Position numbers and translations under genes: made by a program
Assembly: GCA_023265365.1 (NCBI GenBank)
Contig: JAHFTY010000010.1
Coordinates: 4,885-45,349 of the forward strand
Source of the DNA: Acidobacteriota bacterium
GTDB lineage: Bacteria > Acidobacteriota > Terriglobia > 20CM-2-55-15
Direction: 5' to 3'
DNA: 40,465 bases
Notes under the pieces: generated by a model
Told to the model about the DNA's origin: nothing
The model's database searches: none
Seen by the model: only the letters and a program-made list of their open reading frames with translations
Shown here: positions 3,615 to 14,793 of the stretch, in pieces
Layout of the letters: each line of letters starts with the position of its first letter
Numbering within the stretch: position 1 is the first letter of the stretch

Positions 3615-3641
3615 TGTAACCCCAAACGAGAGATCGGCGTA
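3615..3641 (+). promoter_or_regulatory. candidate ECF sigma-type promoter TGTAAC-N17-CGTA
   Basis: TGTAAC at 3615-3620 and CGTA at 3638-3641, resembling Bacillus SigW/SigX-type ECF promoters; just upstream of the ECF sigma ATG at 3650. Confidence 0.45.
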
Positions 3642-3649
3642 TTGAGACT

Positions 3650-4177
3650 ATGAAATTTGATCGCGAACTGATTGTTCGCGCGCAGGGTGGGGACGGCACA
3701 GCCCAGGAGAGCATCGTCAAGCAGTTTTCGCCGATGGTTTTCAGGCTGATCAGCCGGTTCTTCAGGTCGAGAGAGGACGTGGAGGACCTGGCCCAGGACG
3801 TTTTCCTGAAGGTCTTTGCGCGTATCGATCAGGTGCGGCCGGACGAGAACTTTTCCGGTTGGCTGGCCCGAGTGGCGGTAAATACATGTTATGACGAGTT
3901 GCGGAAAAACCGGCGGCGCAAATTGGCCATGGAAACGTACGGGCCTGAGGCCTTTCGGGAAGCCTCCGTGGCGCCACCGGAAGTGGACTCTTACGGAAAA
4001 GCACGAGCGGCTTTGGAGAGTCTTGATCCAAAGCTTCGAATCCCGTTGATTCTGAAGGAAATAGAAGAGCAGTCCGTCGAGCAGATCGCACGGACCATGG
4101 GGTTGACCCAGACTAATGTGAAAGTCCGGCTGTTTCGGGCCAGAAAGAAACTGGCGGCCATTCTGGGTCAACGCTGA
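3650..4177 (+). CDS. ECF-type RNA polymerase sigma factor
   Basis: Region 2 (MVFRLISRFFRSREDVEDLAQDVFLKVF) and region 4 (LRIPLILKEIEEQSVEQIARTMGLTQTNVKVRLFRARKKL). Confidence 0.93.
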   Translation: MKFDRELIVRAQGGDGTAQESIVKQFSPMVFRLISRFFRSREDVEDLAQDVFLKVFARIDQVRPDENFSGWLARVAVNTCYDELRKNRRRKLAMETYGPEAFREASVAPPEVDSYGKARAALESLDPKLRIPLILKEIEEQSVEQIARTMGLTQTNVKVRLFRARKKLAAILGQR

Positions 4178-4192
4178 GGGGGAACAGGAAAG

Positions 4193-4543
4193 ATGGATAC
4201 AAAACTTAAAGAATTCTTCGACGAAGAAAAAAAACGAGTCTTTACCCCCGATCCACATTTCCACACGCGCGTGATGGCCAGGGTGCGTGAGGCGCGGGCA
4301 GCCGACTACACCATCTGGGACGCCGTTCCGAGTTCCAGCCGTCCCGTGTTTGGACTGGCTCTTGTCCTCATGCTTGCTTTCCTGGCGGTTCAGTTATTCA
4401 TTCCTCAAATCCCCGAGCGCGGGTTTCTCGACGCGCTGCTTGAGGCGGAACAGGGGCCGTCGGACGCGATGTTGTCTTCGGTGGCGGACATGCCGGACCA
4501 GGAGTTTGTCAATCAACTGCTGGGGTTTGAGGAGCAGAAATGA
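4193..4543 (+). CDS. single-TM protein, putative anti-sigma factor without zinc finger
   Basis: About 50-aa polar N-terminus, one TM (VFGLALVLMLAFLAVQLFI), short C-terminus; sits directly behind the ECF sigma gene. Confidence 0.6.
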   Translation: MDTKLKEFFDEEKKRVFTPDPHFHTRVMARVREARAADYTIWDAVPSSSRPVFGLALVLMLAFLAVQLFIPQIPERGFLDALLEAEQGPSDAMLSSVADMPDQEFVNQLLGFEEQK

Positions 4544-5037
4544 TCGCGCGATCGGCGTTGGGAAAGATCCTCGTCTTCTCCGTCTTCTTTATCGGGATCG
4601 GCACCGGCGCGCTGCTGGACACGGCCTACCGGACCCGCGTCAGCAGGGCGGGCAACGACGGCGACCGCCGCGGCGGCGAACACGGGTTGAGCCCGCAGGA
4701 ACGCGCCAAACGCGACCTGGACCGTATGGGCCAGTATCTCGGGCTCGATCAGAACCAGAAGGAACAGATCGCGAAAATCCAGGATGAAACGCGTGGGGAA
4801 TTCCGGGCCCTGCGTGAAAAGACGGATCCCGAATTCAAAGCACTGCGCGAGAAAGTGGATCCACAGTTCAAGGCCATCGAAGAACGATCCCGCGCCCGAA
4901 TCGGCGCCATCTTAAACGCAGAACAGCGGCGCAAATGGGAAGAAGTGCGGGCGCAGCGCCAGAACAATGGGCGTGGCCGGCCGGGGCCGCGGTCTGGCGA
5001 TCGCACGGACAAGTCGAATCGACCGGATAAGCAATAA
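4540..5037 (+). CDS. membrane-anchored Spy/CpxP/CnrX-like periplasmic helical protein
   Basis: N-terminal TM anchor, then charged alpha-helical region (LGLDQNQKEQIAKIQDETRGEFRALREK...RIGAILNAEQRRKWEE). ATGA overlap with the preceding gene. Confidence 0.65.
   Translation: MIARSALGKILVFSVFFIGIGTGALLDTAYRTRVSRAGNDGDRRGGEHGLSPQERAKRDLDRMGQYLGLDQNQKEQIAKIQDETRGEFRALREKTDPEFKALREKVDPQFKAIEERSRARIGAILNAEQRRKWEEVRAQRQNNGRGRPGPRSGDRTDKSNRPDKQ
4798..4896 (+). repeat. three tandem 11-residue (33-nt) coding repeats
   Basis: EFRALREKTDP / EFKALREKVDP / QFKAIEERSRA within the Spy-like protein. Confidence 0.7.
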
Positions 5038-5089: not shown

Positions 5090-8002
5090 GTGCACATGCG
5101 GAAGCTCTTAATAGCGGCCATGATCCTGCTGACCGCGACGATCGGCTTTGCCCAATCGGCAAAGGTTCGGGGCAAAGTTTTGGACAGTTCAGGCCTGATC
5201 ATGCCCGGCGCAACAGTGAAGCTGTTGCAGGGCGACAAGATCGTCAAAGAAGGCGCCACGACCGCCACCGGCGACTTCGACCTTGCCGTGAATCCGGGAG
5301 ATTACCGGCTGGAAGTCTCGGCCCCCGATTTTGCGACCAGTACTCAACCGGTCAAGGCCGCTGCCAATCCGGCTCCCATCAACGTGAAGCTGACCCTCGC
5401 TGTTCTTGCGACGAATGTGGACGTGACCGAAAACAGCAACGCCGTCAGTATCGATGCCGACTCGAGCCTGTCGACAACGACGCTGGCCGGAGACTCCATC
5501 GCGGAACTGCCGGACGATGAAACCGAACTGGCGGCTTACCTGCAACAGATCGCCGGATCGCGCGGCGGCGCCGAGTCGGGCGGTGGGAATGGCGGTTTCG
5601 TCATCGACGGGTTCAGCGGCGGACGTCTGCCTCCGAAAGACCAGATTCAGGAAATCCGGATCAACAACAATCCCTACAGCACCGAATTCAGCGGCCTGGG
5701 CTTTGGCCGCGTCGAGATCATCACGCGCGCCGGGACGGGAAACTTCAACGGCAACATGCAGTTCAACTTCAGAGATGAATCGCTGAACGCGAACAACCCG
5801 TTCTCCACCGAGAAGCGGCCACCGTATCAGACCCGCAATTTCAATACGAACTACGGCGGCCCGATCATCAAGAACAAGCTCACCATGAACTTCCGCGCCA
5901 ACAACAACGAGCAGGACAACAGCGGTGTCATTCGAGCCCTGGTGCCGGCCAGCATCAGCCCGACCGGATCGTTCAATCAGTCGTGGGTCAATCCCAGCGT
6001 CAATCGCGGCGCCAACGTTCGCGGTCAGTACGCGATCACGAAAAACCAGGTGCTGAACTTCAACTATTCCTATGGTTCGAACAAACGCACCAATCAGGGA
6101 CTCAGCGAATTCACGCTTCCTTCGCGCGCGTCCGACAGCAAGAGCTCGAACTATGAGATCCAGATTCGCGAGACCGCGATCATGAGCACGTCGCTCGTCC
6201 ACGAAATGCGTTTTGAAGTGGGTCGCGACAAGAGCAACCAGACGCCCCGGACCGCGGGAATCACGATCAATGTTCTGGACGCGTTCAATGGCGGCGGCGG
6301 CCAGAACCGGAACAGCAGCAATAACCGGAACCTGGAATTCGGAAACCTTCTGCTGTATTCGAAGGCGAAGTGGACGTCGAAGGCCGGCATGCAGATCAGC
6401 CGGGTGAAGAACCACAGCGAGTCCTACAACAACTACACCGGCACGTATTCCTTCTCGAACCTGGCAGACTACCTCGCTGGAAAGCCTCTCCAGTTCACGC
6501 AGACAACTGGAAATCCGATTCTGGATTCGAGACAGACGGAATTCGGTGTCTTCTGGCAAAACGACTGGAAAATCACTCCTAAATTCAGCTTTTCCGGCGG
6601 CGTGCGTTACGAATCCCAGACGAATCTGAAGGACTTCAACAATATCGATCCGAGGATCGGTTTCGCGTTCGGACTGACCAAGACCTCGCTGATCCGCGGC
6701 GGCGCAGGAATTTTTCATCAACGGCTGAATATCAACAACGTTCAACAGTTGATGCGCTTTGACGGCACGCGTCAGCTCCAGATCACCGTTCCGAATCCGT
6801 TCTACGATCCAGCCAGCCCTCCGGCCGGAGCAGCGGCGACTCCCGGCACGATTCGAGTGCGTGCGGAGGATCTGACAGCGCCCTATAACGCAAACACATC
6901 GCTGTCTCTGGAAAAGTCCTGGCCGCACGGATTCGGAACCACGTTCTCGTGGGATACCACGCGGGGTATCCATCTGTTCCGAAGCCGTAACTTGAACGCA
7001 CCCTATCCGGGCACCGCGATCTCGCAGGATCTGCAAGACCGATTGAATTCCCGTGACGCCGCGGTCAAAGCGGCGGCCAGGGAGCAGGTAGACCGGTTGC
7101 GGCCTCTCTACCCCAACGTTGGCAACGTGAATCAGTTGGAGTCGACCGGGAAGTCGCGCTCCAACAATTTCAACATCGGATTCCGCGAGAGCCAGCCAAA
7201 GATCTGGAATCTCCAGATCTTCGGGAGCTACGGACTCGGATACAACAGGAGCGACACGAACGACGCATTCGGCCTTCCGATGAACGGCTACAATCTGGCC
7301 CAGGAATGGTCCCGCTCGCAATTCGACACGCGCCACCGTTTCAATACAGGAATCAACCTTCGATGGCCTTCCGCCATGGGATTGGCTCGAAGCTCAAACA
7401 TGTTCGCGAAGGGCATCGGCAACCTCTGGAACGCCTCGTTCGGAAACATGTTCACGATGCTGAATATCAACGCCAGTTCGGCCCGGCCCTTCAACATCAC
7501 GACCGGCCGCGACAACAACGGAGATACCTCCATCAACGACCGGCCGGATGGATACTCGCGCAACGCCGGCATCGGGCACGACAATTACAACGTCAACCTG
7601 AACTTCAGCAAAACCTACAACCTCAAGCATGAACGCAGCGGTGGCGGCGGATCCGGAAACGGAGTGAATCCCTACCTCGCCTCGTTCGCCGAGCCGCAGC
7701 GCGGCGGCGGGGGCTTTCCAGGTGGATTTCCCGGAGGTGGGGGCGGCGAACAGCGCGGCCCCGGCGGCGGACCGGGTGGCGGCGATCGCGGCGGCCAGAG
7801 GGGCGGTCCCGGTGGCCCCGGTGGCCGAGGTCAGCAACCGAGTCGAGGGCCGACGATGTCCTTCACCGCAAATGTGAACAACCTGCTGAATAACACGCAG
7901 TACGGCAACTTCAGCGGCGTGATGACCTCGCCCTTCTTTGGAAAACCCACGAACGCCCAAAACTGGCGGCAGGTTAACCTCGGATTGCGTTTTAATTTCT
8001 AG
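5090..8002 (+). CDS. TonB-dependent receptor with N-terminal carboxypeptidase-regulatory-like domain (Oar-like)
   Basis: Signal peptide, KVRGKVLDSSGLIMPGATVKL domain, plug motif GGFVIDGFSGGRLPPKDQIQEIRINNNPYSTEFSG, C-terminal barrel ending VNLGLRFNF. Gly/Arg-rich insert near the C-terminus. Start may instead be ATG 5096. Confidence 0.88.
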   Translation: MHMRKLLIAAMILLTATIGFAQSAKVRGKVLDSSGLIMPGATVKLLQGDKIVKEGATTATGDFDLAVNPGDYRLEVSAPDFATSTQPVKAAANPAPINVKLTLAVLATNVDVTENSNAVSIDADSSLSTTTLAGDSIAELPDDETELAAYLQQIAGSRGGAESGGGNGGFVIDGFSGGRLPPKDQIQEIRINNNPYSTEFSGLGFGRVEIITRAGTGNFNGNMQFNFRDESLNANNPFSTEKRPPYQTRNFNTNYGGPIIKNKLTMNFRANNNEQDNSGVIRALVPASISPTGSFNQSWVNPSVNRGANVRGQYAITKNQVLNFNYSYGSNKRTNQGLSEFTLPSRASDSKSSNYEIQIRETAIMSTSLVHEMRFEVGRDKSNQTPRTAGITINVLDAFNGGGGQNRNSSNNRNLEFGNLLLYSKAKWTSKAGMQISRVKNHSESYNNYTGTYSFSNLADYLAGKPLQFTQTTGNPILDSRQTEFGVFWQNDWKITPKFSFSGGVRYESQTNLKDFNNIDPRIGFAFGLTKTSLIRGGAGIFHQRLNINNVQQLMRFDGTRQLQITVPNPFYDPASPPAGAAATPGTIRVRAEDLTAPYNANTSLSLEKSWPHGFGTTFSWDTTRGIHLFRSRNLNAPYPGTAISQDLQDRLNSRDAAVKAAAREQVDRLRPLYPNVGNVNQLESTGKSRSNNFNIGFRESQPKIWNLQIFGSYGLGYNRSDTNDAFGLPMNGYNLAQEWSRSQFDTRHRFNTGINLRWPSAMGLARSSNMFAKGIGNLWNASFGNMFTMLNINASSARPFNITTGRDNNGDTSINDRPDGYSRNAGIGHDNYNVNLNFSKTYNLKHERSGGGGSGNGVNPYLASFAEPQRGGGGFPGGFPGGGGGEQRGPGGGPGGGDRGGQRGGPGGPGGRGQQPSRGPTMSFTANVNNLLNNTQYGNFSGVMTSPFFGKPTNAQNWRQVNLGLRFNF

Positions 8003-8024: not shown

Positions 8025-8053
8025 GTGGCTGTCTTCCCCCGGAAGGCAGCCAC
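8025..8053 (+). terminator. Rho-independent-like terminator hairpin
   Basis: GTGGCTGTCTTCC-CCC-GGAAGGCAGCCAC, 13-bp stem with one G-U pair, preceded by an A run and followed by GTTTCT; just after the receptor stop. Confidence 0.8.
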
Positions 8054-8077: not shown

Positions 8078-8878
8078 ATGAATCGATTGGCTCTTCTACT
8101 GGCACTGGTTCTGATCGCCGTTCCTGTCTTTGCACAGGAAGGCGGCGCCGGCGACGGCGGCTTTGGCGGGCTTCTGGGTATGGGCGACGCGCCGCGAAAC
8201 AACAATGCGCCCCCGCCGGACCGGCTGGTGCAGCTCCGCAAGATTCTTCTCGATGCGAACGTTCCTTTGAACAAGGATCAGGAAAAAGCCCTCAGCAACA
8301 TGCTCGAGAAGGACATCAAACAGTACACGGCCGATCTTGAGAAGAAGTTTCCCACGGAAGTCGCGGCCGCTCGCGCGACAGCCGAAGGAGCGCCCGAGGG
8401 AGCGGTTCCTGCGGGCCGGCCCGGTGCAGGCGGCCAGGCTGGCGAACGTGGTGGTGGCCGAGGCTTTGGCGGCGGTCGCCGGGGCGGCGGAGTTCCTCCC
8501 AACAGCCCGTTGGGGCTCGAAATGACTCGTCTCAACACCGAGCTTCAAAACAAAGTGACCGCGGCCCTGAAGCCCGAACAGCAGGCCGCCTTCAAGAAAT
8601 TCCAGAACGATCAGGTCAAGAGAGCCGGCGGGTTCGGGGCATTGAAGCTCATCATGCAGGAAGCCGGCACGGCGCTCAGCGCCGATCAGGAGGCCCAGAT
8701 TCAGGCTCTCTATGCGGAGGAGAATCGGCAGCGCCAGCAGATTATCCGTGAATCTCAGGGGCAGCCCGACAGAGCCAGGCTGGATGCCCTGACGGCCGGG
8801 ACGATGTTGAAGGTGACCAAGATCCTTACCGCGGACCAGAAAAAGTTCTTCCTGGACGCCCTCAAAAAGCAGCAATAG
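8078..8878 (+). CDS. secreted Spy-like/LTxxQ-like helical protein with Gly/Arg-rich linker
   Basis: Signal peptide (MNRLALLLALVLIAVPVFAQ), repeated LxxDQ-type motifs (LNKDQEKA, LKPEQQAAF, LSADQEAQI, LTADQKKFF), GERGGGRGFGGGRRGGG linker. Confidence 0.6.
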   Translation: MNRLALLLALVLIAVPVFAQEGGAGDGGFGGLLGMGDAPRNNNAPPPDRLVQLRKILLDANVPLNKDQEKALSNMLEKDIKQYTADLEKKFPTEVAAARATAEGAPEGAVPAGRPGAGGQAGERGGGRGFGGGRRGGGVPPNSPLGLEMTRLNTELQNKVTAALKPEQQAAFKKFQNDQVKRAGGFGALKLIMQEAGTALSADQEAQIQALYAEENRQRQQIIRESQGQPDRARLDALTAGTMLKVTKILTADQKKFFLDALKKQQ

Positions 8879-10289: not shown

Positions 10290-13200
10290 ATGAAACGGAT
10301 TTTCACACTGCTCTTCTTCCTATGTCTGACACGATGTCCGGACATCTTTGCACAGGCTGCTGGTTTCGGAAATATCTCCGGCGTCGTCCATGACGCGACG
10401 GGCGCGCGAGTTCCGGGAGCCAGCGTAACGATTACCAACGAATCGAAGGGAATCGTCCGAAACCTCATTTCCAACGAAGTGGGACTGTTTTCGGCGCCCG
10501 CTCTTGTACCGGCGTCCGGTTACGCGGTGACGGTGAAACTGACCGGATTTTCCGACTACAACGCAAAGAACATTGACCTGCAGGTCGGTCAGGAGATCAG
10601 CCTGGATATCGAACTCGGCGTCGCCGGCGCAACGACCGAATTGAGCGTGGTTTCCGAAGCGCCAATCGTCGACACGTCCAAGGTTGACGTTTCACAGGTC
10701 GTCAACAGCACGCAGATCCAGGAACTGCCAATCAATGGCCGCCGCGTCGACTCCTTTGTTTTGCTGACGCCGGCCGTGGTTCCCGACGGCACATTTGGAT
10801 TGTTGAGCTTCCGCGGAATTGCGGGAGGCAACTCCTTCCTCACGGACGGAAACGACACGACCAATCAGTTTTACAACGAGAATGCGGGACGCACCCGCAT
10901 CTCTTCGCAGATCTCGCAGGATGCGGTTCAGGAGTTTCAGGTGCTGACCAACGGATACTCTGCCGAATTCGGCCGGGCTTCCGGGGGCGTGGTGAACACC
11001 GTTACCCGCAGCGGAGGCAACACCGTTCACGGCACCGGTTACTGGTTCTTCCGCAATCAATCCCTCAATGCCCGCGACCGCTACGCAACGGTCAATCCGG
11101 ACGAGAAACGCAATCAATTCGGCGGAAGTGTTGGCGGACCGGTTGCGAAGGACAAGTTGTTCTACTTCTTCAACGTCGAGTTCACGCGAAGGAATTTCCC
11201 GCTCGTTAACCGCCTCATCAATCCTCAGTTTTTTGATGGAAACGGTAATTTCCTCCAGACGTGCGCCGCGCCGGCCACCGCCGCCCAATGCGAAGCGGCA
11301 CGGCGATTCCTCGATCGGCAGTTCCAGACTCTTCCTCGAACGGCAAACTCCGAATTGGGTTTTGGAAAAGTCGATTGGCTGGCCGACGAGCGCAACACCG
11401 TCAGCCTGAGCTTCAACGGTTTGCGATGGCTTTCTCCCAACGGAATTCAGACCCAGGCGGTTCTGACGAATGGAAACGGCATCGGTAACAACGCCAATTC
11501 CACCGTGCGAACCCGATATGGGCGCGCATCCTGGACCAATATTGTGACGAACAGCATTGTGAATGAACTTCGTTTTGGCTGGTTCAAGGACCGGCTCTAC
11601 GACTACGTGAATCCCGATCTGATTCCGGCCCAGACCGGGACCGTCGGTCTTTCGGTCGCCGGACAGTCGAATCTGGGGACGGCCACCGACTACCCGCGTT
11701 TGAATCCGAGCGAGCAGCGATTCCAGATTGCCGACAGCATGAGCTGGACCCGCGGATCGCACAACATGAAGTTCGGGTGGGACGTCGCCACCACGCAGGA
11801 CTACCTCGATATTCTGCGCAACCGCGCAGGGTCGTACTCCTACGGCACCTGGACCAACTTCGCGCTGGATCTCACCGGCAACACCACCGGCACGAAACGG
11901 TGGCAGTCGTTCTCACAGACGATCGGAAACCCGATCCTCGATTTCCGCACGTCGGATTACGCGTTCTTTGGGCAAGACCAGTTCCGCGCGACGAGCAAGT
12001 TGACCCTCAATTTCGGTCTCCGCTACGACTACAGCGACCTGCCTCAGCCGAAGGTCGTCAATGCCAACTATCCTCAGACGGCGAAGATCCACAAGCCGAA
12101 CAAGAACTTCGCTCCCCGCTTTGGGTTTGCCTACTCCGTGGCCGACAAGACGGTCTTACGCGGCGGGTACGGAATGTTTTACGCGAGGTTCCAGGGCGCT
12201 CTGGTTCAAACGCTCTTCCTTGCCAACGGCGTGTATCAACCCGCTGTTTCGCTTAGCGGCGCAAACGCGTCCGATCTGGCGGCCGGCCCGGTTTTTCCGA
12301 ACAGGCTGCCGCTGAATGCAGCGAACCTGCCAACGGGCAGCGTGGACATCACGTTCGCTTCGCCGGATTTCCGCAACCCATATACGCAGCAGGCGGATCT
12401 GGCGGTCGAGCGGCAACTGACGGGCAGCACGTCGCTCACGCTGAATTACATCTGGAGCCGTGGCGTTCAGATCACGACAAACCGAGACGTGAATATCGGC
12501 GCTCCGGGACCGACGGTCACCTATCGAGTCAACGATGCGAGCGGTAACCAGGTGGGTTCCTACACGACCGAAACCTATCGACTGGCGAATCGCGTCGATA
12601 CCCGCTATCGCCGCGTGATTCAGGTCGAAAATGGCGGCCGCAGCTATTACGACGCTCTTGCGGCCCAGTTGAAAAAACGCATGTCCAAAGGTGTCGAAGC
12701 TTCGGTTGCATACACGTATTCCCACGCCATCGATACGGCGAACATGGGCGGCGGAAGCAATGCGTTGTTCTTCGACACCCTTCGGTCGACAGCGAATGGA
12801 AGCTACAGTCAGGATAAAGGCTCGTCGAGTCTGGATCAGCGTCATCGTCTGGTATTCACGAGCATCCTTCAGCCGACGTTCTCCCACAACGACTCGGCCG
12901 CTGCGAAATTCCTCATCAACAACTGGCAACTGACGCAGATCACCACCGCAGCCTCGCCTCAGCCGGCAACCACGACGATCCGCGTCGTGACTTCGCCGTT
13001 TGCCGGGGCAGCCTTTACCACCACGCTCAACGGTTTTGGAGGAAGCAACCGTATTCCCTTCGAGCCGTTCTCCAATCTGGACATCGATAGGGTGTTCCGA
13101 ACGGACGCCCGGATCAGCAAGCTCCTGCCGTTCAACGACCAGGTGAAGTTGTACGTGAACTTCGAAGCGTTCAATGTGTTCAACCATGTTTCCAATACTT

Positions 13201-13346
13201 TTGTGAACACGGAGAAATACTCGGCAGGCAACAACACTCTCGTTCTCACGCCGAGCAACGGTCTCGGTGTCGGCAACCAGTCCCAGGGATTCCCCGACGG
13301 CACCAACGCCCGCCGCGCCCAATTCAGCATGCGGCTGGTTTTCTAG
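10290..13346 (+). CDS. TonB-dependent receptor with N-terminal carboxypeptidase-regulatory-like domain (Oar-like)
   Basis: Signal peptide, ISGVVHDATGARVPGASVTITNE, plug (IQELPINGRRVDSFVLLTPAVVPDG), VQEFQVLTNGYSAEFGRASGGVVNTVTRSGGN, C-terminal RAQFSMRLVF. Confidence 0.92.
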   Translation: MKRIFTLLFFLCLTRCPDIFAQAAGFGNISGVVHDATGARVPGASVTITNESKGIVRNLISNEVGLFSAPALVPASGYAVTVKLTGFSDYNAKNIDLQVGQEISLDIELGVAGATTELSVVSEAPIVDTSKVDVSQVVNSTQIQELPINGRRVDSFVLLTPAVVPDGTFGLLSFRGIAGGNSFLTDGNDTTNQFYNENAGRTRISSQISQDAVQEFQVLTNGYSAEFGRASGGVVNTVTRSGGNTVHGTGYWFFRNQSLNARDRYATVNPDEKRNQFGGSVGGPVAKDKLFYFFNVEFTRRNFPLVNRLINPQFFDGNGNFLQTCAAPATAAQCEAARRFLDRQFQTLPRTANSELGFGKVDWLADERNTVSLSFNGLRWLSPNGIQTQAVLTNGNGIGNNANSTVRTRYGRASWTNIVTNSIVNELRFGWFKDRLYDYVNPDLIPAQTGTVGLSVAGQSNLGTATDYPRLNPSEQRFQIADSMSWTRGSHNMKFGWDVATTQDYLDILRNRAGSYSYGTWTNFALDLTGNTTGTKRWQSFSQTIGNPILDFRTSDYAFFGQDQFRATSKLTLNFGLRYDYSDLPQPKVVNANYPQTAKIHKPNKNFAPRFGFAYSVADKTVLRGGYGMFYARFQGALVQTLFLANGVYQPAVSLSGANASDLAAGPVFPNRLPLNAANLPTGSVDITFASPDFRNPYTQQADLAVERQLTGSTSLTLNYIWSRGVQITTNRDVNIGAPGPTVTYRVNDASGNQVGSYTTETYRLANRVDTRYRRVIQVENGGRSYYDALAAQLKKRMSKGVEASVAYTYSHAIDTANMGGGSNALFFDTLRSTANGSYSQDKGSSSLDQRHRLVFTSILQPTFSHNDSAAAKFLINNWQLTQITTAASPQPATTTIRVVTSPFAGAAFTTTLNGFGGSNRIPFEPFSNLDIDRVFRTDARISKLLPFNDQVKLYVNFEAFNVFNHVSNTFVNTEKYSAGNNTLVLTPSNGLGVGNQSQGFPDGTNARRAQFSMRLVF

Positions 13347-13408: not shown

Positions 13409-14242
13409 TTACTTCTGAATTCCAAGAGCTGTAAGAGCCGATTGGACTGAGCGGAGAAGGCGGGAAGACTCGTCCCGCAGGGATCCGCGGAACGCAATGG
13501 TCCCATTGGCGTCGACAACGACGATATCGCCGGCTTTGCCGCCCAGAAGTTGCGAGCCCTGATTCACCGCCGAAGGAAAAGTGGTATTGGCAGGTTTGAC
13601 TTCCCGGTCCTCGGAGATTCCCAGAACGCGTATTTTCGTATTCGCGCTAACAGACTTGTAGACCCGTTCAAGGTTCGCCGCAGTTTGCGGATCTTTGGAA
13701 TCCCACACACCGAAGATCAGAACATATCCCCGGTAATCGTTCAGCGTGCGCGAATACCCTGCCAGGTCGGTGACCAGAAATTCGGGAGCCTGCCTGTCGG
13801 CCTGACGCGCCTCGCGCGGAACACTCGACGGCCGGTCCGGCACAGTTGCTTCGGGTTTGGCCCGGCCGGTGACCGCGCCGGGATTCTGGATTTTGGGGGA
13901 TGTTGCGGGCTCGGGCGCAGGAATCTTGGATGTCATCGCCGGCGGAGCAGGAGTGCCCGGCGTCGAGGCCGGTTGACGAACCTGCGCGACGATCAGAAGG
14001 AGCGCTGCGGCGATCGCTGTTCCGAAAGCTCCAATCAGGACCGGCGAACGCCGCCGTTTTGGGCTTCGGGCGATGGCGAGGTCATATTCGAAGACCTGTT
14101 TCACCATGGGGTCGATCGCTCTCAGGCTCTCGATCTGTTCCCGGCAATGGGCGCAGACGGCCAGGTGGCCTTGGGCGAGCCGGTCGTCTTCGAAGGCCAG
14201 GCGTTCGAGGTTTTCTTCGATCCAATGACAGTCGACGTTCAT
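13409..14242 (-). CDS. zinc-finger anti-sigma factor fused to a thioredoxin-like (AhpC/TlpA-like) domain lacking CXXC
   Basis: N-terminal HLAVCAHC zinc-finger motif, TM (VLIGAFGTAIAAALLLIVAQV), Pro-rich linker, C-terminal QAPEFLVTDLAGYSRTLNDYRGYVLIFGVWDSKDPQ...GDIVVVDANGTIAFRGSL. Confidence 0.75.
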   Translation of the reverse strand: MNVDCHWIEENLERLAFEDDRLAQGHLAVCAHCREQIESLRAIDPMVKQVFEYDLAIARSPKRRRSPVLIGAFGTAIAAALLLIVAQVRQPASTPGTPAPPAMTSKIPAPEPATSPKIQNPGAVTGRAKPEATVPDRPSSVPREARQADRQAPEFLVTDLAGYSRTLNDYRGYVLIFGVWDSKDPQTAANLERVYKSVSANTKIRVLGISEDREVKPANTTFPSAVNQGSQLLGGKAGDIVVVDANGTIAFRGSLRDESSRLLRSVQSALTALGIQK

Positions 14243-14793
14243 CTTCTTTTTTTCGTCCGGAGCGTTGCGTTCAGCCGTTTGCGGGCATAGAAGATCCGCG
14301 ATTTCACGGTGCCTTCCGGAATTTCCAGAACAGCCGCAATTTCGGGGACCGTCATGCCGTCGACGGCGAGCATCATGAGCGGCAGCCGAAACTCGTCCGG
14401 CAGCCGCTTCACGTGTTTGCGCACGTCCAGCATCCTTTCTCGATCAAATTCGCGCAGCGGGTCGGGCGGATCGTATTCGTGGATGGTCCCATCGTCGGAC
14501 GGAAATTCCATGTCGCCAAAGAAGACCCATCGCTTCAGACGTCGAGCCACGCTGCGATGATGGTTGATCGCGACCCGTACCACGATCCGCGACAGCCAGA
14601 TGCGCAGCGGACAGTCACCTCGAAACCCCTTCATGCCTCGATAACCGCGCAGGAGAGCTTCCTGAACGACGTCCTCGGCATCGCTCGGATTCCGGGTGGA
14701 CGCCACCGCGATCTGAAGCAGGAACGGACGGCATTCGCGTGCGGCCGCTTCGAAGTCGATTTCTTCGCCTGCCCTCTTGGCTACGGGAGTCAC
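14239..14793 (-). CDS. ECF-type RNA polymerase sigma factor (RpoE-like)
   Basis: NPSDAEDVVQEALLRGYRGMKGFRGDCPLRIWLSRIVVRVAINHHRS and LPLMMLAVDGMTVPEIAAVLEIPEGTVKSRIFYARKRL; overlaps the anti-sigma start by 4 nt. Confidence 0.93.
   Translation of the reverse strand: MTPVAKRAGEEIDFEAAARECRPFLLQIAVASTRNPSDAEDVVQEALLRGYRGMKGFRGDCPLRIWLSRIVVRVAINHHRSVARRLKRWVFFGDMEFPSDDGTIHEYDPPDPLREFDRERMLDVRKHVKRLPDEFRLPLMMLAVDGMTVPEIAAVLEIPEGTVKSRIFYARKRLNATLRTKKRR

What the first reader, a model, noticed from the sequence alone, without database searches (positions are those of the whole stretch)
3615..5037. CnrYXH-like three-component ECF operon: sigma, single-TM protein, membrane-anchored Spy-like sensor
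An ECF sigma gene is followed by a short single-TM protein with no zinc finger and, by ATGA overlap, a TM-anchored helical Spy/CpxP-like protein. This matches the architecture of CnrH/CnrY/CnrX (ECF sigma, short single-TM anti-sigma, membrane-anchored helical sensor). The third protein's periplasmic part has very few His/Met residues and no Cys, so sensing of Co/Ni as in CnrX looks unlikely and a different envelope signal is plausible.
Basis: partly seen in the sequence, partly recalled or inferred. Interest (0 to 1): 0.68.

Follow-up and report, generated by a model that had tools for sequence, protein, structure and literature searches.

The report
Autoregulated envelope-stress sigma operon, Spy-like partner
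A soil acidobacterium carries a self-activating stress switch, conserved across much of its phylum, in which a transcription factor is held at the inner membrane by an anchor protein coupled to a chaperone-like protein, and which in this lineage drives an outer-membrane protein; it is an uncharacterised variant of a known type of switch.

Summary
ECF sigma (3650-4177), a 116-aa single-TM protein without Cys (4193-4543) and a TM-anchored Spy/LTXXQ-like protein (4540-5037, ATGA overlap) form a tri-cistron present in 11/11 genomes of its family. (1) The operon starts with an ECF-type promoter, TGTAACC-N16-CGTA (3615-3641), present in 10/10 assessable relatives; a stricter version occurs in the 11 genomes only at this operon. 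(2) In 8/11 genomes it runs on into an Oar-like outer-membrane barrel, often followed by a second, soluble Spy-like protein. (3) The same anti-sigma/anchored-Spy pair occurs across Acidobacteriota, usually behind an ECF sigma and, in the loci examined, often before OMP or efflux genes. The short protein is not a CnrY relative: profile comparison makes it a shortened zinc-finger-type anti-sigma (hhalign 96%, E 1e-9) that lost its zinc finger. The third protein is by sequence closest to Spy; its similarity to the CnrX fold is not significant, and metal ligands are absent. Best reading: an autoregulated outer-membrane/envelope-stress switch in which the anchored Spy-like protein controls the anti-sigma. 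A sensor role for it is inferred; an effector-chaperone role (as proposed for Spy in Bacteroidales CirYZ-Spy) is the main rival.

The parts
3615..3641 (+). ECF-type promoter TGTAACC-N16-CGTA (-35 at 3615-3621, -10 at 3638-3641), 8 nt before the sigma ATG, so the mRNA is probably leaderless or nearly so
   Evidence: Same motif, same 16-nt spacer, in 10/10 assessable family members; stricter form TGTAACCC-N13-16-GACGTA has 6 hits in 11 genomes, all at this operon, reversed-pattern control 0
3650..4177 (+). ECF sigma factor, 175 aa
   Evidence: Pfam Sigma70_r2/r4_2; 74-82% identical in L012-L017
4193..4543 (+). P2: single-TM anti-sigma factor, 116 aa; cytoplasmic N-terminus (1-50) with two predicted helices, TM about 51-72, about 44-aa periplasmic tail; zinc finger lost
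   Evidence: hhalign of family profile A2 to same-position zf-HC2 anti-sigmas A6: prob. 96.4, E 1.4e-9; 9/12 of A6 match zf-HC2; 6/11 P2 members match DUF5056; helices from AF2
4540..5037 (+). P3: inner-membrane-anchored Spy/LTXXQ-like protein; TM motif FxxGxxxG and LxLxxxQ ... LxxxQ signature; AF2: TM helix plus four helices
   Evidence: A3: F16, G19, G23, L69, Q129 invariant in 38/38; 32/38 match LTXXQ; profile hits Spy in PDB E 7e-7; AF2 pLDDT 83
5090..8002 (+). Oar-like outer-membrane protein: CarboxypepD_reg domain plus beta barrel, 970 aa, ends in Phe; probable output of the operon
   Evidence: Pfam PF13620 E 7e-14, PF25183 E 8e-57; directly behind P3 in 8/11 family genomes
8078..8878 (+). 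Second Spy-like protein, soluble periplasmic (signal peptide ending VFA-Q by inspection), weak LTXXQ/Metal_resist matches; behind a terminator-like hairpin at 8025-8053
   Evidence: kept in 5 family genomes, absent from 2, the other 4 not assessable

Best explanation
This is an autoregulated ECF-sigma operon for outer-membrane/envelope stress. At rest the sigma is bound by the N-terminal helices of P2 at the inner membrane. P3, anchored next to P2 by a glycine-zipper-like TM (FxxGxxxG), watches the periplasm with its Spy-like domain and keeps P2 in the inhibiting state, either by TM-to-TM contact as CnrX is thought to act on CnrY or by shielding P2's periplasmic tail from proteases as RseB does for RseA. 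Unfolded outer-membrane protein or another envelope ligand that occupies P3 makes P2 let go (or be cut), and the freed sigma transcribes its own operon: sigma, P2 and P3 (feedback) plus, in this lineage, the Oar-like OMP and perhaps a soluble Spy-like protein. Shown from sequence: gene order and conservation, promoter, homology of P2 to anti-sigmas, TM and Spy/LTXXQ relationship of P3, OMP linkage. Inferred: P2 binds this sigma; P3 controls P2; the signal; the release step.
For: P2 is homologous to zf-HC2 anti-sigmas at the same position. The operon has its own conserved ECF promoter. P3 follows the anti-sigma, not the sigma: of the 29 best P3 loci elsewhere in the phylum, 28 have a single-TM anti-sigma-like protein before P3, 20 also the ECF sigma, and 8 (one family, f29) have the anti-sigma-P3 pair behind queA with no sigma nearby. 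The P3 TM motif is invariant in 38/38, which a mere signal peptide would not need. Output: Oar-like OMP in 8/11 family genomes; in G203, which lacks it there, one of the motif's other matches precedes a Spy-like domain fused to an Oar-like OMP; in other families the genes next to P3 include OMP barrels (L178, L179, L181, L187, L188) or adaptor/efflux genes (L077, L193).
Against: No direct evidence that P3 senses anything or touches P2. In Phocaeicola vulgatus the Spy of a sigma/anti-sigma/spy operon is read as an induced chaperone (PMC13114119), so P3 could be output only. Two family members (G200, G203) have just the three genes at this place. The AF2 model of the sigma-P2 read-through has the sigma in the compact form seen in SigW/RsiW and CnrH/CnrY, but contacts could not be read out and the P2 tail is of low confidence. 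The same -35/-10 motif also precedes a zinc-ribbon gene in several genomes, so the motif may serve more than one ECF sigma.
Confidence: 0.6

Rival explanations
1. Effector-chaperone model: sigma and P2 form an ordinary sigma/anti-sigma pair; P2 itself senses or is cut by proteases, and P3, like the soluble second Spy, is merely an induced chaperone that guards newly made outer-membrane proteins from an anchored position.
For: P. vulgatus CirY/CirZ/Spy: sigma, anti-sigma and spy co-transcribed, deletion of cirZ raises cirY and spy (PMC13114119). P3's nearest solved relative by profile is Spy. In G200/G203 the operon holds nothing else that could be output.
Against: Invariant TM motif; P3 stays with the anti-sigma even where the sigma gene is elsewhere; translational overlap with P2; a separate soluble Spy-like gene already provides a chaperone next to the operon.
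Confidence: 0.28
2. True CnrYXH-type metal sensor: P3 binds Co/Ni or another metal and releases the sigma through P2.
For: Same three kinds of component; CnrX chains are among the Foldseek hits for P3; some relatives in other families sit next to adaptor/efflux genes (L077, L193) and 19/38 P3 members match Pfam Metal_resist.
Against: P3 has 1 His, 1 Met, 0 Cys in its periplasmic part and no HxxxH; P2 descends from zinc-finger anti-sigmas, not CnrY; gene order differs; Foldseek hits to CnrX not significant.
Confidence: 0.04
3. Cell-surface signalling: the Oar-like OMP is itself the receptor and passes an outside signal through P3/P2 to the sigma, in the manner of FecA/FecR.
For: OMP encoded right behind P3 in 8/11 family genomes; Oar-like OMPs also next to P3 in L179 and L181.
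Against: The three-gene switch is kept where the OMP is absent (G200, G203, G208); the OMP's N-terminal domain is CarboxypepD_reg, and no signalling (STN) domain was matched.
Confidence: 0.08

Closest known systems
CirY/CirZ/Spy of Phocaeicola vulgatus (PMC13114119)
   Same: sigma - anti-sigma - spy-like gene order in one transcript; operon induced when the anti-sigma is deleted, i.e. autoregulated; envelope-stress context; the second such locus of P. vulgatus has SusC/D outer-membrane genes next to it
   Different: Different phylum; not tested whether CirZ and P2 are homologous (P2's N-terminus weakly matches DUF5056, which also rings in a Bacteroides control genome); here P3 appears to stay membrane-anchored and an Oar-like OMP follows
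CnrH/CnrY/CnrX of Cupriavidus metallidurans
   Same: ECF sigma, short single-TM anti-sigma, TM-anchored helical sensor of the LTXXQ/Metal_resist kind
   Different: P2 is not related to CnrY but to zf-HC2 anti-sigmas; P3 lacks the metal ligands; gene order and downstream genes differ
Zinc-finger (ZAS, class I) anti-sigmas of other Acidobacteriota at the same position
   Same: Homologous over P2 residues 17-113; same TM and periplasmic tail; same neighbours
   Different: P2 has lost the HxxxCxxC zinc-finger part; several other lineages have no recognisable one either (e.g. L083, L085, L086, L093, L099, L105)
sigmaE-RseA-RseB and CpxP of E. coli
   Same: Proposed logic: a periplasmic protein restrains the membrane anti-sigma or sensor and is titrated by misfolded envelope proteins
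   Different: No RseB relationship seen; P3 is Spy-like and membrane-anchored; proteolysis not tested

Membership tests
CnrYXH system | ECF sigma plus short single-TM anti-sigma plus TM-anchored helical sensor encoded together | tested here: met
CnrYXH system | Anti-sigma of class II (CnrY) type | tested here: not met
   P2 profile is homologous to zf-HC2 (class I) anti-sigmas; no PDB hit to CnrY
CnrYXH system | Sensor with His/Met/Glu metal site | tested here: not met
   P3 periplasmic part 1 His, 1 Met, 0 Cys, no HxxxH
CnrYXH system | Sensor with the CnrX fold | tested here: inconclusive
   Foldseek lists CnrX chains but E at least 2, TM up to 0.56 of target
Spy/CpxP (LTXXQ) superfamily | LTXXQ sequence signature | tested here: met
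   32/38 family members match PF07813; profile finds Spy, E 7e-7; window P3 alone is below the cut-off
Spy/CpxP (LTXXQ) superfamily | Soluble periplasmic protein after signal-peptide cleavage | tested here: inconclusive
   By a simple motif check, window P3 has no AxA-like site after the hydrophobic stretch but 19 of 38 family members have such a triplet in the scanned stretch; invariant FxxGxxxG argues for a retained TM
ECF sigma with cognate membrane anti-sigma | sigma2 and sigma4, no sigma3 | tested here: met
ECF sigma with cognate membrane anti-sigma | Autoregulated promoter upstream of the sigma gene | tested here: met
   Conserved promoter sequence; activity itself not testable here
ECF sigma with cognate membrane anti-sigma | Anti-sigma binds the sigma | not testable with these tools
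   AF2 read-through model made but coordinates could not be inspected; Foldseek sees only the compact sigma form

The most novel reading that the evidence does not exclude
A phylum-wide acidobacterial envelope-stress switch in which a membrane-anchored Spy-like chaperone acts as the co-anti-sigma: it measures the load of unfolded outer-membrane protein and reports it through TM contacts to an anti-sigma, with Oar-like OMPs or tripartite exporters as lineage-specific outputs.
Probability: 0.4. Interest if true: 0.7.

Novelty: new variant of a known kind. Interest (0 to 1): 0.5.

Why it matters
Acidobacteriota are abundant soil bacteria whose envelope-stress regulation is little described. A module whose third protein has matches in roughly half of the sampled genomes (P3 profile: 139 of 247, although not every match was checked for its neighbours) gives a concrete, testable candidate. 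It would show that Spy-type chaperones were recruited as regulators of sigma factors beyond the metal sensor CnrX, and that a short 'CnrY-like' anti-sigma can arise by loss of the zinc finger from the common class. It also points to a function for Oar-like OMPs, which are numerous in these genomes.

Tried and rejected
CnrY homology: P2 alone and its profile find nothing relevant in the PDB. Apolipoprotein E hits of P3 rejected as amphipathic-helix similarity. Regulon search: loose motif TGTAACC-N16-18-CGTA gives 5 hits in the own genome against 3 in the control; the four others lie in or beside unrelated genes and were discarded. First structural alignment of the sigma-P2 read-through (A4) misaligned P2 rows onto sigma and was replaced by A5. 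The ECF reclassification paper (10.1093/nar/gkaa1229) is not held, so assignment to a numbered ECF group was not possible. Ignavibacteria/Bacteroidetes/Planctomycetes/Verrucomicrobia sigma relatives L019, L020, L022-L026, L028, L031 show no P3-type gene behind the sigma. Literature searches for this arrangement in Acidobacteria found nothing specific.

Full report
WHAT IS THERE. The window lies in an acidobacterial genome; its nearest relatives are MAGs mostly named Acidobacteria gp5. Three genes are confirmed: an ECF sigma (3650-4177), P2 (4193-4543, 116 aa, one TM, no Cys) and P3 (4540-5037, N-terminal TM, then helical; ATGA overlap with P2). They are followed at 52 nt by an Oar-like outer-membrane protein (5090-8002; CarboxypepD_reg plus OMP_b-brl_4) and, after a terminator-like hairpin (8025-8053), by a second Spy-like protein with an apparent cleavable signal peptide (8078-8878).

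PROMOTER. All upstream regions of the family share TGTAACC, exactly 16 nt, CGTA, about 8 nt before the sigma start codon (10 of 10 assessable; the eleventh contig starts inside sigma). The stricter form TGTAACCC-N13-16-GACGTA occurs 6 times in 11 genomes, every time here, with 0 for the reversed control pattern. This is the form of an ECF promoter ('AAC' in the -35, 'CGT' in the -10; general knowledge) and argues for autoregulation and a leaderless or near-leaderless sigma mRNA (inference).

CONSERVATION IN THE FAMILY. Sigma, P2 and P3 are present in this order in 11 of 11 genomes, with DUF4340/gldG before and lysA after in several of those whose contigs reach that far. The OMP is directly behind P3 in 8 of 11; it is absent there in G200, G203 and G208. 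The second Spy-like gene is kept in 5, absent from 2, and not assessable in 4 (contig ends). So the switch is the three genes; the OMP is a lineage output.

PHYLUM-WIDE. A profile of P3 finds matches in 139 of 247 sampled acidobacterial genomes; neighbours were checked only for the best loci. Of the 29 best loci outside the family, 28 have a single-TM anti-sigma-like protein before P3, 20 of them with an ECF sigma before that. Eight loci, all from one family (f29), have the anti-sigma/P3 pair behind queA with no sigma nearby. The counts are not a random sample, because the loci were picked by P3 score. An independent line: a scan with the sigma alone returned eight acidobacterial loci and all eight have the anti-sigma and P3 behind it. 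A second independent line: the P2 profile has weak hits in 11 other genomes, most of them directly upstream of P3 hits (compare coordinates).

WHAT P2 IS. The P2 profile aligns to same-position anti-sigmas of other families with hhalign probability 96.4 and E 1.4e-9, over P2 residues 17-113 and the C-terminal part of the longer proteins; 9 of 12 of those carry Pfam zf-HC2. P2 is thus a shortened zinc-finger-type anti-sigma. A zinc-finger motif is also not recognisable in several other lineages, and within one genus one species has HLKSCRRC and the other HLKSCGRY at the same place (L091, L093), so loss seems to have happened more than once. On this evidence the resemblance to CnrY is convergent.

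WHAT P3 IS. In 38 sequences F16, G19, G23 of the TM and L69, Q129 of the LTXXQ-type signature are invariant. 32 of 38 match LTXXQ; the profile finds E. coli Spy in the PDB at E 7e-7. AF2 gives a TM helix and four helices, pLDDT 83. Foldseek lists CnrX and Spy chains but nothing significant. Metal ligands are lacking. An invariant FxxGxxxG is more than a signal peptide needs and suggests helix packing, most simply with P2 (inference). A crude cleavage-site check is inconclusive for the wider family (19 of 38 have an AxA-like triplet).

OUTPUT. Besides the OMP here, neighbours of P3 in other families are Oar-like OMPs (L179, L181), small OMP barrels (L178, L187, L188), or adaptor, ABC and outer-membrane-efflux genes (L077, L193); other loci have unrelated neighbours, so this is a tendency. 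In G203, which has no OMP behind P3, one further match of the promoter motif lies before a protein with a Spy-like N-terminal domain and an Oar-like barrel; the Spy-like similarity there is weak and partly low-complexity, and the motif also has about as many chance-level matches elsewhere as its control, so this is suggestive only. Such fusions also exist in G200 without the motif.

MECHANISM. Best supported: autoregulated envelope-stress switch with P2 as anti-sigma. That P3 is its sensor or co-anti-sigma is inferred from its constant place behind the anti-sigma, the invariant TM and the existence of a separate soluble Spy. The rival, P3 as induced chaperone, has a direct precedent: in Phocaeicola vulgatus a sigma/anti-sigma/spy operon (cirY, cirZ, spy) is induced when cirZ is deleted (PMC13114119). 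CnrX controlling CnrY is the precedent for a sensor (PMC4598750; class II anti-sigma described in PMC7406223).

LIMITS. No interaction data. The sigma-P2 read-through model (TGA read as Trp) matches SigW/RsiW and CnrH/CnrY chains in compact form, but this covers sigma alone and is no proof of contact. Assignment to a numbered ECF group was not possible. Many genomes are fragmented MAGs.

Noticed in passing
13409-14242 and 14239-14793, minus strand: A second ECF sigma with an overlapping anti-sigma that has an N-terminal zinc-finger motif (HLAVCAHC), a TM and what looks like a C-terminal thioredoxin/TlpA-like domain (by eye; not searched).
   Followed up: no
L158 (own genome, G000:C353) and L150, L151, L153-L156: A conserved zinc-ribbon protein gene of about 157 aa has an ECF-type promoter (TGTAAC-N17-CGTA) in 7 family members, own genome included; possibly a second target of this or another ECF sigma.
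   Followed up: partly
L144, L145, L146 and L084, L087-L089, L094, L098, L100, L106: In one acidobacterial family (f29) the anti-sigma/anchored-Spy pair sits behind queA with no ECF sigma nearby.
   Followed up: partly
L148, L173, L175-L177 (G200, G203): Tandem and dispersed Oar-like OMPs whose N-terminal domain looks Spy-like instead of CarboxypepD_reg.
   Followed up: partly
4825-4890: P3 of this species alone, in its family, carries an 11-residue insertion that looks like an old tandem duplication in a helix (DPEFKALREKV / DPQFKAIEERS, 17 of 33 bases alike).
   Followed up: partly
10290-13346: Another Oar-like OMP gene (CarboxypepD_reg-type N-terminus by eye) just beyond lysA; such genes are numerous in these genomes.
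   Followed up: no
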